The notes under the pieces were generated by a model. It worked only from the letters and a program-made list of their open reading frames with translations. It did no database searches and was not told the DNA's origin. A DNA stretch of 64,000 bases, taken from NCBI RefSeq assembly GCF_019688735.1, contig NZ_JAIFYA010000004.1:1-64000 (forward strand). The letters are read 5' to 3'. The DNA is from Thermosulfurimonas sp. F29. GTDB lineage: Bacteria; Desulfobacterota; Thermodesulfobacteria; Thermodesulfobacteriales; Thermodesulfobacteriaceae. The translations under genes and the position numbers were made by a program. The stretch's first letter is position 1, and each line of letters begins with the position of its first letter. Of this stretch, positions 24,133 through 58,484 are shown piece by piece.

Positions 24133-24678
24133 GTGGACATAAATTCGCCAAGAGGGACGCATACGGCGAATGTGAGGAAATTTGCTTTCGTTGACGGAGC
24201 AGAAGCGGAATTTGCGTGGGAGCGGGCGGGTGCGGCTCTTCGGGCGCTGGTGATTGAGCATTACGGTAGCGTGGGACGGTACACCAGACGCGTGAAGTTT
24301 TCGCCTTCCACAGTAACCGCGCTTTTCGTGGCTCCGCACCGGAGGCGTCTCTTCGTGATAGCCCGGGCTTTACTGATCATACCGGTGCGCCTCTCATCCT
24401 TCGTGGCGGTCGCCCGGGATCCTTCGCTTCCCCTCGAAGTGTGCCGTCCTTATCGCATACGCTGGCGCAATGCGCAACGCTGGTTCGAGGAAAACATCCG
24501 CCGCGACGGATGGCGCGAGACGGCTTCACAGCTCGGCTTGAGCCTTTCCGGCATTCACCGGGCTTTGCACCGCCCTTATCACCTCCACCTCCGCACCCTT
24601 CTCCGCATCCTCGCGGCCGCCCGTACCGATCCCGTTTCGTTTCTCGCTTCCCTCGAGGTTCCCATCGATAAGCTTTAA
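24133..24678 (+). CDS. Tandem helix-turn-helix DNA-binding protein
   Basis: 181 residues starting at GTG 24133, or GTG 24172. Two similar helix-turn-helix segments are visible: YGSVGRYTRRVKFSPSTVTA (about 43-63) and WRETASQLGLSLSGIHRALH (about 127-147), each followed by a helical stretch, as in Xre-type repressors or KorA-like regulators. Basic residues are frequent. The gene ends inside repeat array 3 (final residues PIDKL come from the first box). It is a natural candidate for the protein that binds the arrays or regulates the pilus operon; neither is shown. Confidence 0.75.
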   Translation: MDINSPRGTHTANVRKFAFVDGAEAEFAWERAGAALRALVIEHYGSVGRYTRRVKFSPSTVTALFVAPHRRRLFVIARALLIIPVRLSSFVAVARDPSLPLEVCRPYRIRWRNAQRWFEENIRRDGWRETASQLGLSLSGIHRALHRPYHLHLRTLLRILAAARTDPVSFLASLEVPIDKL

Positions 24679-24721
24679 CACAAAACTTATCGATAAATTT
24701 TCGGTTGAAGCTTATCGATAG
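24661..24721. repeat. Triple ATCGAT palindrome array 3
   Basis: ATCGAT cores at 24664-24669, 24689-24694 and 24714-24719, 25 bp apart. The boxes read CATCGATAAG, CTTATCGATAAA and CTTATCGATAGA. The first box encodes the last residues of the helix-turn-helix gene. The array lies between that gene (plus) and the terminator of the convergent 278-residue gene (minus). Confidence 0.92.
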
Positions 24722-24739
24722 AAACCGCGATAAAGGGCA

Positions 24740-38368: not shown

Positions 38369-38428
38369 CTATCGGAAACAGTTAAGAAAATCCTTATCGA
38401 TAAGATTTTGCTAAAACCTTATCGATAG
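38369..38428. repeat. Triple ATCGAT palindrome array 4 (first box degenerate)
   Basis: Boxes at 38371-38376 (ATCGGA, decayed), 38396-38401 and 38421-38426 keep the 25-bp spacing. The middle box is CTTATCGATAAG and the third CTTATCGATAGG. The second spacer is ATTTTGCTAAAAC, like arrays 1 and 2. The array lies between the 253-residue gene (plus) and the end of the IS607-type element (minus). Confidence 0.88.
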
Positions 38429-38450
38429 GCTCAACCCGCACTACACCTGG

Positions 38451-40049
38451 TTAACCAAACCGCACATTAGTGAATTGTGCGGCCGCCCCCGCACCAGGTA
38501 CGGGAGCTGGCGGTCCCGTCGCCCTCGTCCCTGCCCCTGAGACCAAAATCCGCCTCAAGGGTGAGAAGTCCCTCACGAAGGGCTTCCCCAGGAGAGGGAC
38601 GACGACCGCCACCCGGAGAACTCTCCAGCCCTTTTGCCGGGCTCCGGCCCGGCCCCTCGGAGACTTCTTCCCTCGAGCGGTCCCCTGCGGGAAGACCGGA
38701 TCGCTCCCCGGGTCTTTTAAACTCTCAAGGTGCCTTTGAAGCACCTTTATCTCCCTGCTTGCTCGTTTGATCTCCCTCCGAATCCGATTCCGCTTCCACG
38801 AATTCGATTCCCGCTCCAATTCCTCGTTAAGAGCCTTCCGCTTCTCCCGCCACCGCAAAATCCCATACTCCAAAAACTCCCTGTCCGAAAGCAACCTCCG
38901 GTAATTACGGGGAATTCCGTCCCATAAGCCCAGCCCTCGCCTTCCTATCACCAGCGCCGCCGCCCGGTCCCTATCAAGCCCATATTGCGGGGCATACTTC
39001 AAAGCCCCCACCACTGAACTCCAAGCCGCAGGAACTTTTCTTACCTCAATTCCATTTCTTCGCGCCAACACCTCTATCCGCTCAAGCAATTTCCGATAAA
39101 CGAATTGATGAAGCCTCCTCCTGAGCTTGCCCGCTCCGTCTCCCCGGCAACCCTTGGGAAGCTTCTTAAGATTCTCCATCACTATCGCCCGCCTTCTCTT
39201 CCGGGCCATTTCCACCACTCGATGAGCCGTTTCCCAGAGCAAAAGATCCTTCTTTCCACCGGAAACCCCGATCAGGTGTGACAGATCCATCCGCCCCGAA
39301 TCCACCGGATTCCCATCCTCTTTCACCTCCGCCCAGGCCAGATGAAACGGACTGGCATTCACATCGAGACCGATTACCCCCCAACTCTTGGTGATCTCCA
39401 CTTCGGGCCGCTTCTCCTCAAAGGACACCAGAGCGTAAAGCCTTCCGTCTTTGAGTTTGAGTTCCACGGAGTAAGGGAACCATCTGCCGGAAAGCTCGGC
39501 CTGAATCAGGTCGTGCACAAAAGCCGTCCATTTGTCCCGATCCCTTCGGCCCACCTGCACCTTCCGGTGCACATGGGCATATACATACTCCCGCTCACCC
39601 ACATTGATCCGAAGATAAAGAGTGCCTTCCCTCCAGACAAAACGCAGATTGAGATTGCCGTGCTTTGACCGGTCTCCTCTGGAATAGAGATGACCCTGCC
39701 TCGCCTCCCGCCATCTTCGCTTCAATCTCTCCCGATCCCTTCCGTTAAGATGTTTCCTCTTTAACTGCTCGAAAAGTTTCCGTCCTCCGAAAACCACCTT
39801 CCGAACACTTCGCCCCGCTTCCTTTCTTGCGGAAAATATCTCTCTCGCCTTCAAAATGGCGTCGTCCGCATACCGGGTGTTCAATCCAAAAAGAGAAGGA
39901 AGGTCCCGCTTAAGCTCGTTTCGAGTCCGGCCTTCTATGAGTCTCTGATAACCATACCGCATGCAGGCCGACCATCGGCGCATGAGATCCAGAACTTTCT
40001 CCTGATCGCTCTTAGATTCAAAGCTCAGCCGACATTGAAGAGTAATCAC
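38451..40049 (-). CDS. tnpB: TnpB-type RNA-guided nuclease family protein lacking the zinc finger
   Basis: 532 residues, GTG start overlapping the tnpA stop. RuvC motifs are GLDVNASP (Asp 229), IVMENLKKL (Glu 292) and GLDRDRAAALVI (Asp 361). The four-cysteine ribbon normally found between RuvC-II and RuvC-III is absent, replaced by AWSSVVGALKYAPQY, so this belongs to the zinc-less TnpB subgroup. The last about 90 residues are Arg/Gly/Pro-rich and cover DNA able to form hairpins, as expected where the guide (omega) RNA overlaps the tnpB 3' end. In related elements TnpB cuts donor sites to keep the element. Confidence 0.9.
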   Translation of the reverse strand: MITLQCRLSFESKSDQEKVLDLMRRWSACMRYGYQRLIEGRTRNELKRDLPSLFGLNTRYADDAILKAREIFSARKEAGRSVRKVVFGGRKLFEQLKRKHLNGRDRERLKRRWREARQGHLYSRGDRSKHGNLNLRFVWREGTLYLRINVGEREYVYAHVHRKVQVGRRDRDKWTAFVHDLIQAELSGRWFPYSVELKLKDGRLYALVSFEEKRPEVEITKSWGVIGLDVNASPFHLAWAEVKEDGNPVDSGRMDLSHLIGVSGGKKDLLLWETAHRVVEMARKRRRAIVMENLKKLPKGCRGDGAGKLRRRLHQFVYRKLLERIEVLARRNGIEVRKVPAAWSSVVGALKYAPQYGLDRDRAAALVIGRRGLGLWDGIPRNYRRLLSDREFLEYGILRWREKRKALNEELERESNSWKRNRIRREIKRASREIKVLQRHLESLKDPGSDPVFPQGTARGKKSPRGRAGARQKGWRVLRVAVVVPLLGKPFVRDFSPLRRILVSGAGTRATGPPAPVPGAGAAAQFTNVRFG

Positions 40050-44061: not shown

Positions 44062-44424
44062 ATGCAAATCGGTAATCGAATTAGTGGTGAGACCCCATAC
44101 TGGCAGAAACGAGGCGAACACCTGCTCCGGGCGCTTTCGCCTCTGGTGGAGTACTTCGGGTGGGGATGTTTCCGCGAAGAACCCCAGCGGTATCTGCACC
44201 TGGAGTTTTTGATCGCTCTGGGACAGCTCGCCGAGGGAGGAGCCATTCCGCGGGATCGCGCCGGGTATCTGATCGAGTACCTCGACGACCTGTGCGGAGA
44301 GTTCGCCTGGCGCAAGCATGTGCCCGGGCTGAACGAATCCGAGCAGTTCGAGCGGATAAAACGCATGCATCTGAGGGTGGCGGAGGAGGCGGTCAGGTTG
44401 TTATCGGCGCGGAGGAACCCCTAG
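44062..44424 (+). CDS. Helical hypothetical protein
   Basis: 120 residues behind GGGGGGAAGG. All-helical and soluble (LLRALSPLVEYFGW, YLIEYLDDLCGEFAW). It has no recognised family. It lies in the run of small plus-strand genes and could be a regulator or inhibitor. Confidence 0.75.
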   Translation: MQIGNRISGETPYWQKRGEHLLRALSPLVEYFGWGCFREEPQRYLHLEFLIALGQLAEGGAIPRDRAGYLIEYLDDLCGEFAWRKHVPGLNESEQFERIKRMHLRVAEEAVRLLSARRNP

Positions 44425-44464
44425 GGTGGCTGGGAAACCGAAGGAGTCAAAAGCACAAAAAGGA

Positions 44465-44714
44465 ATGACAAAAAAGACCGAGAGAAAGGAGGTCAAGTAT
44501 GACCTAGGCCTTCTTCCTTCCTGCACTCATCTTACTCTACGGTTTCCTGGTTCTCATTGGAACTATGACAGCGCTAACAGTTTTCGGAACCGCCAGTCCT
44601 TATTGGTATGTGTTAGCAAAGCCAAGAAATGCCTACCTGTTATTGACCTGTATTCTCGGTATTCCAGCCCTGATCGTAACTGGACTCTGGTACATAGTTC
44701 ATTCACTCCAATAA
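44465..44714 (+). pseudogene. Small two-helix membrane protein, interrupted by frameshift or amber codon
   Basis: From ATG 44499, behind a perfect AAAGGAGGT site, the frame reads Met-Thr-TAG and then a typical two-helix membrane protein to TAA 44714 (AFFLPALILLYGFLVLIG, YLLLTCILGIPALIVTGLW). Alternatively a charged start at ATG 44465 (MTKKTERKEVKYD), in a different frame, would join this hydrophobic frame through a one-base shift near 44500-44510. Either way the present sequence does not encode an intact protein without recoding. A sequencing error is possible. Confidence 0.6.
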
Positions 44715-44716
44715 TT

Positions 44717-44898
44717 TGTGGGTGTTGGGGAGGAGGTCGGTGGGTGGAGTCGGCCTCTGGTCTACAACCTCTCAGTTCATAGGGGCTCTTTGCCCCAAGC
44801 AACTCATGGGTGGTTGGGAGAGGCTGGTGGTGCACTCCTTGAGGGGCTCTCTGGTCCTATGCCATGATGACCTACTGGCCTCCTCCCCACCACCTCTA
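44717..44898 (+). ncRNA. Candidate structured RNA with 26-bp closing stem
   Basis: Positions 44720-44745 pair with 44870-44895 over 26 positions with one mismatch and four G-U pairs. A second helix pairs 44749-44758 with 44819-44828 (10 bp, three G-U). Its arm contains further pairing (44766-44769 with 44812-44815) and an apical GGGGC-TCTTT-GCCCC hairpin (44782-44796). A third hairpin (44835-44846, UUGA loop) completes a three-way junction. The G-U pairs and absence of a credible ORF favour RNA over protein. It lies 31 bp before the ATG at 44930, so it is either a leader regulating that gene or an independent RNA. The strand is inferred from flanking genes. Confidence 0.65.
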
Positions 44899-44929
44899 TC
44901 CTACACATTTTGCTTATAGGAGGTAAGCC

Positions 44930-45145
44930 ATGCTTGATCGTCCAGTCATAATACCTATAGACAGAGGTCCTCACTTAAGCCCCCGGTGGCTCTATGTCGT
45001 TACCGACTGTCGGTACCGGACCGAGGAATACGCCAGCCCGAAAGAGGCACGCGAAGCATGGGAAAGAGGAGAAAGGGTGCCCGTGTTTGATCCCGCAATG
45101 TGTGAAAGGAGAACCAGAGAAATTTTGGAAAAGCATTTTTATTGA
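44930..45145 (+). CDS. Small hypothetical protein after the structured RNA
   Basis: 71 residues behind ATAGGAGGTAAGCC. Beta-rich N-terminus, then a charged helix (SPKEAREAWERGERV). Two cysteines. Its leader contains the candidate structured RNA, so expression may be controlled by it. Confidence 0.75.
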   Translation: MLDRPVIIPIDRGPHLSPRWLYVVTDCRYRTEEYASPKEAREAWERGERVPVFDPAMCERRTREILEKHFY

Positions 45146-45158
45146 GAGGAGAGAAAAA

Positions 45159-45212
45159 ATGAAAGGTTTGAATTCGGTGCGCCTTGTTGCAGGCTTCCAC
45201 GCGGTTCCGTGA
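45159..45212 (+). CDS. Very short ORF, possibly a truncated gene
   Basis: A 17-codon ORF (MKGLNSVRLVAGFHAVP) with a good GAGAGGAGAG site. It stops just before the sharp drop to AT-rich sequence at about 45220. It may be a microprotein, or the stub of a gene cut by the insertion of the AT-rich segment. Confidence 0.3.
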   Translation: MKGLNSVRLVAGFHAVP

Positions 45213-45265: not shown

Positions 45266-45817
45266 ATGGGCTTCAAAAGTCAAGAAGAAATTAAAATAGC
45301 TGTTTATATCCTTAGTCTCCTCCTTTGGGCTCGAGAAAAAAATTATGAAATTTGGACTACTTCTTTACAAAAGTTGCTTTTTCTGTGGTTTTTGTCAGAA
45401 AATGATCGTGAAATTTTAGAAACTTATAGAGCCTATTTGTACGGTCCATATAGTTCAAAAGTCTCAGAAGTAGCAGATTTAATAAAGCTATACGGGCTCA
45501 TAGAAGCCGATGATACATCGTGGGGGGCACGTCTTTATAAAATAAAGAACAACATTCCTGAAGAGCTTTCCAAATTGATCATTCAAAAAACGGCAAATTT
45601 TCAAAAATTTTTAGAAAGCTTTGAAAAAAACAATAAAAAGTATTTAAAAAATCTGCAAAGATTAGCAAATCTTAGCAAAATCTTGTGGTTAAAGAAAATG
45701 GAAAACATACATGACATAAATAAAATTAAAAACAAGCTTAAGTTATACAACTGGAAAATACCTAAAAAGGAGTTAGAAGAAATTGATAAAAAACTGAAGT
45801 CTCAGGAATGGATATAA
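45266..45817 (+). CDS. YwgA/Panacea-like protein, AT-rich foreign gene
   Basis: 183 residues. The first 90 resemble the YwgA/SocA (Panacea) domain: paired helices, LQKLLFLWFLSE, YRAYLYGPYSSKVSEVADLI and LYGLIEAD. Panacea domains act as antitoxins and sensors in many toxin-antitoxin pairs. The C-terminal half is Lys/Asn-rich and helical. The base composition is much more AT-rich than the flanking genes, a clear sign of transfer. The next gene is not an obvious toxin, so the pairing is open. Confidence 0.7.
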   Translation: MGFKSQEEIKIAVYILSLLLWAREKNYEIWTTSLQKLLFLWFLSENDREILETYRAYLYGPYSSKVSEVADLIKLYGLIEADDTSWGARLYKIKNNIPEELSKLIIQKTANFQKFLESFEKNNKKYLKNLQRLANLSKILWLKKMENIHDINKIKNKLKLYNWKIPKKELEEIDKKLKSQEWI

Positions 45818-50129: not shown

Positions 50130-51539
50130 AGAAAACTACGCCAGAAAGCCCCGTATCTGTGATATGGAGATGAATGGCGTCTGAGGGTTTAAAATAAATA
50201 TACGGGGTTTTGGAACTATGACCAAATCCGAAAAGATTAAACAAGCTCTCAAGCAGACAAAAGAAAAAAGAAAGTTCCAAATTCCCAAAGTATTTCAACT
50301 TAAACTCCAAAACATTTCTAAATCCGACCTGCGAACCTTAGAAAGACTTTTTTTGGAAGCCAAATGGTTCTACAACTACGTCATCGCCGACATTGAAAAC
50401 CGCCTAAATAATAAGTCCGAAAAGCTCAAAGAAGTTGAAATCAAAACTCCGAACGGCTTTGAAAAAAGAAAACTTAAAACCTTGGGTTCTCAAATTAAGC
50501 AAGGAATTATTGAAAGAGTCAGAAATAATCTAAACGCTCTTGAAAAAGTCAAAGAAAAAGGTTTAAAAGTCGGAAAACTAAATTTCAAATCAGACTTTAG
50601 GAGCATACCTCTGAAGCAATACGGCATAACCTACAAAATAGACTTTAAGAGAAACAGAGTAAAAGTCCAAGGCATTAAAAAGAAGTTTAGAGTTTTAGGA
50701 CTCCATCAAATACCTGAAAATGCGGAAATAGCTAACGCCTATCTTATCAAAAAACCATCGGGATATTATCTGTATGTAGTTTGCTATCTTTGGAAGGAGG
50801 AAGTTTTAAAGGAAATCAAAAAAGAGCAATTTTCCATTCCTGTAGGGATAGATTTAGGTATTAAAGACCAGCTGATACTGACAACGGGAGAAAAGATTAG
50901 GTGGTATATTCCTGAAACAGAGAGGCTAAAAAGACTTCAGAAGATATTGGCAAGGAAAAAGAAAGGAAGTAAAAACTACCTGAAAGTTAAAAGGTTAATC
51001 CAGAAGGAGTGGGAACATATCAGAAACAAGAGGAGAGATATTCAAAGCAAGGTTATAAGCTACCTAAAAAGATTTCCGCTCATAGCGGTTCAAAATGACG
51101 ATGTAAAGAGTTGGCATGCGGGAATGTTTGGTGGGCAGGTTCAGAACACGGGGGTAGGGGGAATAACTGCAAGGCTGAGATGCCTTGCGACCCTTATCCC
51201 TGTGGAATTTGTAGATAGATATGAGCCTACAACACAAAGATGTTCAAGATGCGGATTTAAGCAAAGACTTGATTTGAGTCAAAGAGTTTTTGAGTGTCCC
51301 AAATGCGGACTAAAAATTGATAGGGATTTAAACAGTGCGTGGAATATTTTGGAACTTGGACTGAAGAAGTTAGCACAAAGGGATAAGGCGCTGGCAGACC
51401 GCCTAAAGTCTGCCCTACCCGTGGACCGCGGGGAAGTTAAGCCTGGGGAGAGGGAAGCCTCTGCACCGTGTTTTGCGCACGGTGTAAGCTCCCTCGTTGA
51501 AACAGGAAGCCCCTCACTTTAGTGAGGGGAGGAGGTCAC
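50130..51539 (+). mobile_element. IS605-type element encoding only TnpB
   Basis: A 1410-bp insertion whose ends are deduced from the split zinc-ribbon gene. The left end follows TTTTTAC (to 50129), like the TTAC target of IS608-type elements. An inverted repeat CCCCGTAT/ATACGGGG (50149-50156, 50200-50207) marks the left end. The right end has the hairpin CCCCTCAC-TTTA-GTGAGGGG (51510-51529) ten bases before the junction. No Y1 transposase is present, so movement would need one supplied elsewhere. Confidence 0.8.
50218..51522 (+). CDS. tnpB: TnpB RNA-guided endonuclease
   Basis: 434 residues. RuvC-I is GIDLGIKDQ (Asp 212), the zinc ribbon CSRCG...CPKCG (Cys 342, 345, 360, 363) and RuvC-III KIDRDLNSAWNIL (Asp 370). 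RuvC-II reads LIAVQNDDVKSW, with Gln-Asn-Asp-Asp where most TnpBs have a Glu, so the second acidic ligand must be Asp 294 or 295. The C-terminal tail (VDRGEVKPGEREASAP, SLVETGSPSL) is encoded by sequence that in this family doubles as the omega RNA. The gene is AT-rich, unlike the surroundings. Confidence 0.95.
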   Translation: MTKSEKIKQALKQTKEKRKFQIPKVFQLKLQNISKSDLRTLERLFLEAKWFYNYVIADIENRLNNKSEKLKEVEIKTPNGFEKRKLKTLGSQIKQGIIERVRNNLNALEKVKEKGLKVGKLNFKSDFRSIPLKQYGITYKIDFKRNRVKVQGIKKKFRVLGLHQIPENAEIANAYLIKKPSGYYLYVVCYLWKEEVLKEIKKEQFSIPVGIDLGIKDQLILTTGEKIRWYIPETERLKRLQKILARKKKGSKNYLKVKRLIQKEWEHIRNKRRDIQSKVISYLKRFPLIAVQNDDVKSWHAGMFGGQVQNTGVGGITARLRCLATLIPVEFVDRYEPTTQRCSRCGFKQRLDLSQRVFECPKCGLKIDRDLNSAWNILELGLKKLAQRDKALADRLKSALPVDRGEVKPGEREASAPCFAHGVSSLVETGSPSL

Positions 51540-58125: not shown

Positions 58126-58142
58126 GGTGACCGGGCCAAAAA

Positions 58143-58484
58143 TTATAAACCCAGCCCCTTGAAGATGAGGGGCAAAGCCTTCCCCGCAGGAATCTTCCCG
58201 CGGGGAGTTTCAACATAATAGTCGACCGCCCCTTCTTGGATCTCTATCCGAGAGGGGCGGTTTTGAATGGCTCCGAACTTTTCTCGGAGCCATTTCTTCG
58301 CCTCCGGGAGGGTCATCCAATCTTCTTCCTCCCTCCCGGAATAGCGCCGGAGAATATACTTCCCTTGGCGCTTAAGACAAATTGAACCATAAAACTTATT
58401 TCCCTCATAATCAATTGTTACCATCTCCCCTCCTGCCCCGCAAATTTTCCCAGCCCGGACCGCGGGGTCACCTGCCCGAGCCAT
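58143..58484 (-). CDS. Small hypothetical protein
   Basis: 113 residues from ATG 58484 (AGGAG site); ATG 58424 behind AGGAGGGGAG would give 93 residues. Mixed alpha/beta and basic (FYGSICLKRQGKYILRR, WMTLPEAKKWLREKF). Unrecognised. It is convergent with the SLOG gene, ending 17 bp from it. Confidence 0.68.
   Translation of the reverse strand: MARAGDPAVRAGKICGAGGEMVTIDYEGNKFYGSICLKRQGKYILRRYSGREEEDWMTLPEAKKWLREKFGAIQNRPSRIEIQEGAVDYYVETPRGKIPAGKALPLIFKGLGL

What the first reader, a model, noticed from the sequence alone, without database searches (positions are those of the whole stretch)
44717..44898. Candidate novel structured RNA with a 26-bp closing stem and three-way junction
The 5' arm 44720-44745 and 3' arm 44870-44895 pair with a single mismatch, and four of the pairs are G-U, which preserves RNA but not DNA symmetry. 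Two internal arms follow, one with an apical GGGGC/GCCCC hairpin. There is no credible ORF, and a small gene with a strong ribosome-binding site begins 31 bp later. I do not recognise a known riboswitch or RNA family.
Basis: seen in the sequence. Interest (0 to 1): 0.82.

Follow-up and report, generated by a model that had tools for sequence, protein, structure and literature searches.

The report
Recombinase-less IS110 element with bridge RNA
The striking hairpin is not a new RNA family: read on the opposite strand it is a diverged copy of the guide ("bridge") RNA of IS110-type jumping genes, sitting in a 429-base element that has no recombinase of its own and landed in a ribosome-binding site, a site choice that its intact relatives and a set of miniature cousins share.

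Summary
The hairpin is real: 26-position closing stem with one mismatch and four G-U pairs, three-way junction, z -4.6. The novel-RNA reading is not the best one. In reverse, a model of 12 IS110 bridge RNAs without the window sequence has one hit in the 64 kb: 44716-44890, minus, full length, E 0.0018. A second copy of the host element in the same genome lacks exactly this segment, revealing a precise 429-bp insertion at a CT core inside the Shine-Dalgarno sequence AGGAGG of the next gene, with an IS110-like right end. All six IS110 copies in this genome, and nearly all in close relatives, sit at AGGAG just before a start codon (control 13%). No recombinase remains; its place holds a small membrane-protein ORF with an in-frame TAG. 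A related genome holds about ten recombinase-less elements of this type. Verdict: new variant of a known kind.

The parts
44492..44920 (-). 429-bp non-autonomous IS110-type element, left end at 44920, right end at 44492
   Evidence: Absent from the paralogous locus on contig C2; ends and predicted pre-insertion site
44490..44491 (-). CT core next to the right end (AG on plus)
   Evidence: Inferred by comparison with the ends of six IS110 copies and the empty site
44921..44922 (-). CT core next to the left end (AG on plus), inside the AGGAGG 44918-44923 of the 71-aa gene
44899..44920 (-). Left end (CCTATAAGCAAAATGTGTAGGA)
   Evidence: Between core and bridge-RNA homology
44716..44890 (-). Bridge-RNA region (match to model R2, positions 1-165 of 165); the hairpin of the finding is the complement of 44717-44898
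   Evidence: R2, built without this sequence: 20.3 bits, E 0.0018, only hit in the window
44858..44866 (-). Candidate left target guide CATGGCATA (target strand has CATGGCTTA, but out of register)
   Evidence: Position by R2 alignment; sequence reading
44835..44841 (-). Candidate right target guide CAAGGAG, complementary to CTCCTT of the target
   Evidence: Position by R2 alignment; sequence reading
44781..44807 (-). Donor-binding hairpin core GAGTTGCTTGGGGCAAAGAGCCCC (relatives: AAGTTGGTTGGGC....AAGCCC)
44492..44503 (-). Right end, CATACTTGAC next to the core (relatives: GATAGTTGA-CT)
44499..44714 (+). Passenger ORF inside the element, antisense to the bridge RNA: two hydrophobic helices, TAG as codon 3 (44505-44507), Shine-Dalgarno AGGAGG 44488-44492 region formed at the right end
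   Evidence: Sequence; no relatives found
44930..45145 (+). 71-aa target gene; intact relative without insertion on contig C2
44062..44424 (+). 120-aa gene upstream of the insertion, shared with the C2 copy

Best explanation
The segment is the left-end non-coding region (bridge-RNA gene, read on the minus strand) of a non-autonomous IS110-type element of 429 bp. An IS110 recombinase acting in trans, or a lost parent's own, inserted it at a CT core inside CCTCCT, the complement of the AGGAGG Shine-Dalgarno sequence of a small gene. The ends leave AGGAGG on both sides: one still serves the target gene, the other precedes the antisense passenger ORF. Shown here: homology to bridge RNAs and its strand, empty site, ends, Shine-Dalgarno targeting by relatives, absence of a recombinase. 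Inferred: transcription, mobilisation in trans, and whether it can still move (the RNA is diverged and probably decaying).
For: Model of this sequence finds IS110 upstream regions as best hits; sense-strand-only similarity z up to 8.6; reverse test with R2 built without it gives its only window hit here, full length, minus; empty site in a 95% identical paralogous element with exact restoration of the target; right end like that of six IS110 copies; Shine-Dalgarno target as in those six and in relatives against a 13% control; ten similar recombinase-less loci in G009.
Against: R2 score is low (20.3 bits against 73-165 for most members) and several pairs of the consensus are broken on the minus strand; the plus strand folds better. 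The left target guide does not match its target in register. The left end differs from those of the relatives. The element is single-copy in this genome. No expression data.
Confidence: 0.85

Rival explanations
1. Dead remnant: an ordinary IS110 copy whose recombinase gene was lost or replaced after insertion; the RNA no longer works and the ORF is an unrelated later gain. It differs from the best explanation only in that the element never moved in its present form.
For: Low R2 score and broken pairs, TAG in the ORF, single copy.
Against: Both ends are still recognisable and precisely placed; recombinase-less elements with bridge RNA are multi-copy in a relative, so such elements do spread.
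Confidence: 0.45
2. A plus-strand cis-regulatory or processing RNA between two genes, perhaps after co-option of the IS110 sequence.
For: Plus strand folds better (-96.4 against -72.3); all three stem transitions are G-U on plus; it lies just before a ribosome-binding site.
Against: Homology is strand-specific to minus; the paralogous gene does without it; no plus-strand homologue found in about 400 genomes; antisense folds of other bridge RNAs are often stronger too.
Confidence: 0.07
3. The segment is ancestral and the C2 copy lost it by recombination between the two AGGAGGT sequences.
For: AGGAGGT lies at both borders.
Against: That repeat is what an IS110 insertion at this target leaves; an IS110-like right end and the bridge-RNA region lie exactly within the borders. 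Precise excision would give the same C2 sequence, and would not change what the segment is.
Confidence: 0.1
4. Chance or a simple inverted duplication without RNA function.
For: Inverted repeats of other origin give strong folds; other regions of the window rank higher.
Against: z -4.6, homology to a known RNA class with two independent models.
Confidence: 0.03

Closest known systems
IS110-family bridge RNA / seekRNA (Durrant et al. 2024 PMC11208160; Siddiquee et al. 2024 PMC11187229)
   Same: Two-hairpin, two-internal-loop consensus; position in the left-end non-coding region; insertion at a CT core without further duplication; right-guide match to the target
   Different: No recombinase gene in the element; diverged sequence; longer closing stem; target is a Shine-Dalgarno sequence
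The six-copy autonomous IS110 of the same genome (L031-L036, L056-L061)
   Same: Same target type and orientation, right end TTGACTCCT against TTGACCTCCT, related bridge-RNA region (z 5.5)
   Different: 394-aa recombinase present; left end GCAATGAATTATG; R2 score 142.6 bits
Recombinase-less miniature elements of genome G009 (L164-L173)
   Same: Bridge-RNA region and both IS110 ends without recombinase, mostly at Shine-Dalgarno sites
   Different: 226-278 bp, several copies, no passenger ORF; four lack the first (target-binding) hairpin
MITEs and transposon-like cassettes with passenger genes (general knowledge)
   Same: Non-autonomous, ends like those of an autonomous partner, passenger instead of transposase
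   Different: IS110 elements have no classical terminal inverted repeats; this one carries a guide-RNA region

Membership tests
IS110 bridge RNA | Sequence and structure match to a profile of bridge-RNA regions that excludes it | tested here: met
   R2: only window hit, minus strand, 1-165 of 165, E 0.0018
IS110 bridge RNA | Two hairpins with internal loops intact | tested here: inconclusive
   Full-length alignment but several non-standard pairs
IS110 bridge RNA | Encoded next to a DEDD recombinase in the same element | tested here: not met
   No IS110 recombinase trace in 44400-45200 or on contig C4
IS110 bridge RNA | Target-loop guides match the actual insertion site | tested here: inconclusive
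   Right guide matches CTCCTT (6 positions); left loop matches 8 of 9 but out of register (sequence reading)
IS110 bridge RNA | Transcribed, binds the recombinase | not testable with these tools
   No RNA or protein data; junction promoter TTGACC-18-TAGGAT only weakly above chance
IS110-family insertion | Precise insertion at a core dinucleotide, empty site known | tested here: met
   C2 paralogue against window
IS110-family insertion | Autonomous element with recombinase | tested here: not met
   hence filed as non-autonomous
MITE-like non-autonomous element | Ends like those of an autonomous element | tested here: met
   Right end and target like six IS110 copies; left end only weakly similar
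MITE-like non-autonomous element | Multiple copies | tested here: not met
   Single copy in this genome; multi-copy only for the miniatures of G009
Known Rfam family (riboswitch, HEARO and others) | Score above the curated threshold | tested here: not met

The most novel reading that the evidence does not exclude
A clade of IS110 elements carries bridge RNAs whose target loop is antisense to translation-initiation regions. It inserts at Shine-Dalgarno sequences upstream of start codons, leaves such a sequence on both sides, and is accompanied by recombinase-less elements with a bridge-RNA region, some with passenger genes, mobilised in trans.
Probability: 0.5. Interest if true: 0.75.

Novelty: new variant of a known kind. 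Interest (0 to 1): 0.6.

Why it matters
Bridge RNAs are a recent class of programmable recombination guides. A natural clade aimed at ribosome-binding sites, with many dispersed targets served by one guide, bears on how degenerate targeting works. Miniature elements that keep only guide region and ends would be natural substrates for action in trans. No mention of either was found in the two founding papers or the library searched, which is not proof that they are unreported. Rfam release 15 gave no hit for this locus, so such loci can pass for novel RNAs in scans.

Tried and rejected
Rfam at gathering and relaxed thresholds: nothing. DNA homologues in phages, plasmids, own genome and 60 relatives: none. 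Flanking proteins in viral contigs, phages and plasmids: none. Passenger ORF in genome contigs, viral contigs, plasmids, PHROGs, NCBIfam: none. Exact-pattern scans for the donor-loop core gave six loci without any R2 match, taken as chance. R1 hits L037, L043-L045, L048 are plain GC-rich hairpins. Attenuator or terminator: no more terminator-like sites than in shuffles. Passenger region as recombinase remnant: no similarity. A simple-transposon reading with terminal inverted repeats was dropped because the true ends lie outside the stem.

Full report
Observation. The plus-strand energy is -96.4 kcal/mol (z -4.64, none of 200 shuffles as low). The minus strand also folds well (-72.3, z -2.88). 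In a scan of 182-nt windows it is among the few most structured regions of the 64 kb. No Rfam family matches.

An empty site. The 71-aa gene downstream (44930-45145) has one clear relative, in the same genome on contig C2. The two loci belong to paralogous mobile elements, about 95% identical over the neighbouring genes, but the C2 copy lacks the stretch from about 44492 to 44920. In C2 the 120-aa gene is followed directly by AGGAGGTAAGCC-ATG of the 71-aa gene. In the window an extra segment lies between two AGGAGG sequences. Removing 44492-44920 plus one core dinucleotide gives back the C2 arrangement.

What the segment is related to. A covariance model from the single window sequence (R1) was run over 395 genomes of the phylum. 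Its best hits are copies of one repeated sequence (L042, L049, L051 in one genome; L046 in another genome of the same family), the best with 35.5 bits, E 2.2e-5. L042 lies immediately upstream of an intact IS110 recombinase gene (PF01548, PF02371 and the NCBIfam IS110 model), the position of the IS110 bridge RNA. Weaker hits in this genome and two relatives (L031-L036, L038, L039) are also IS110 upstream regions. The match is to the strand opposite to the recombinase gene, so the RNA strand in the window should be minus. Local alignments confirm this: the window minus strand scores z 8.6, 7.1, 5.7, 5.5, 5.3 and 5.0 against six IS110 upstream regions; the other orientation gives z of about 0 for the two best and at most about 2 for any; upstream regions of more distant IS110-family members give nothing.

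Independent test. Twelve IS110 bridge-RNA regions, without the window sequence, were aligned (A2). The consensus has the two-hairpin, two-internal-loop architecture of bridge RNAs, and 14 of 26 pairs show compensatory changes. The model R2 has exactly one hit in the 64 kb: 44716-44890 minus, positions 1-165 of 165, 20.3 bits, E 0.0018; with filters off over 6 kb the next best has 6.1 bits. Other IS110 regions score mostly 73-165 bits, so the window copy is a distant or decaying member.

Ends and target. The genome holds six identical IS110 copies with an open recombinase frame. All six have the left end following CCTCCT and the right end GATAGTTGACTCCT. On the other strand the CCTCCT reads AGGAGG a few bases before an ATG that opens an ORF of at least 200 nt. 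The same layout holds for 12 of 12 copies in G010 (one with a short ORF), five of five in G012, single copies in G014 and G035, three in G222 and one of four in G009; four more distant IS110 copies (L063, L064, L066, L068) sit at AGGAGG without a convincing start codon. In 265 kb of this genome only 13% of AGGAGG are so placed. The window insertion has the same layout: minus strand CATGGCTTAC-CT-[CCTATAAGC...CATACTTGAC]-CT-CCTTTCTC. Its right end resembles ATAGTTGA-CT. Joining the ends gives TTGACC-18-TAGGAT, like TTGACT-17-TATAAT or TATATC in relatives; 5% of shuffles do as well, so for the window alone this is weak. Siddiquee et al. report a promoter formed by joined ends (PMC11187229).

Guides. 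In Durrant et al. [quoted passage not shown] Read by eye from the alignments, the left guides of L104 (CATTTTAC-CT) and L063 (TTTCTTC-CT) match their targets in register, and many right guides contain AAGGAG or similar, complementary to CT-CCTT. The window has AAGGAG at that place (six matching positions). Its left loop CATGGCATA resembles its target CATGGCTTA, but out of register. I did not test these pairings statistically.

No recombinase, but company. Nothing like the recombinase remains in the segment. Instead, on the plus strand, an ORF with a good ribosome-binding site (44499-44714) encodes two hydrophobic helices and has TAG as codon 3; no relative was found. A search of 60 relatives with R2 found more bridge-RNA loci than recombinases: G009 has 14 against four. 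The other ten loci of G009 have no recombinase. In seven of them both ends were placed, with lengths of 226-278 bp (two left ends were read too short by the script), mutual identity 81-98%, and a right end GATAGTTGACT or close to it; most sit at Shine-Dalgarno sequences. Four of the seven lack the first, target-binding hairpin, so they would depend on an RNA from elsewhere. Pairs in these RNAs are kept more often than in shuffled controls and slid registers, though the alignment was fitted to the model. Siddiquee et al. showed that the non-coding region works in trans and that a cargo flanked by IS ends moves, so mobilisation of such elements is plausible; it was not tested here.

Conclusion. 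It is the bridge-RNA region of a non-autonomous, probably decaying IS110-type element inserted in a Shine-Dalgarno sequence. What is of interest is not a new RNA family but the target choice of this IS110 clade and the existence of recombinase-less elements with a bridge-RNA region. That these are unreported rests on a limited library search.

Noticed in passing
G000 C1, C2, C5 (L031-L036); G010, G012, G014, G035, G222: A clade of IS110 elements inserts at Shine-Dalgarno sequences just upstream of start codons, always with the left end towards the ATG.
   Followed up: partly
L164-L173 (G009): About ten recombinase-less IS110-type elements with a bridge-RNA region; four lack the target-binding hairpin.
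   Followed up: partly
44499-44714 (+): Small two-helix membrane-protein ORF with a strong ribosome-binding site but TAG as codon 3; no relatives found.
   Followed up: partly
45266-45817 (+): AT-rich gene, absent from the C2 copy, with similarity to the C-terminal part of the DarG antitoxin model (NF048014, E 3.3e-7, below its cut-off).
   Followed up: no
58140-58300: Cluster of strong hairpins on both strands, the most structured stretch of the window, ending in GGGGAGTTTCAAC; it recalls the right end of a TnpB-type transposon, but no such gene adjoins it.
   Followed up: no
38429-38640 (-) and 51490-51535 (+): Strong structure at the 3' ends of two TnpB-like genes, where omega RNAs usually lie.
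   Followed up: no
24653-24730, 38383-38434 and several more places on contig C4: Dispersed palindromic repeats around CTTATCGATAAG, perhaps partition or resolution sites.
   Followed up: no
G000:C4 124310-125480 and 137680-138180: Two arrays of about 30-nt direct repeats with spacers on the same contig, CRISPR-like.
   Followed up: no
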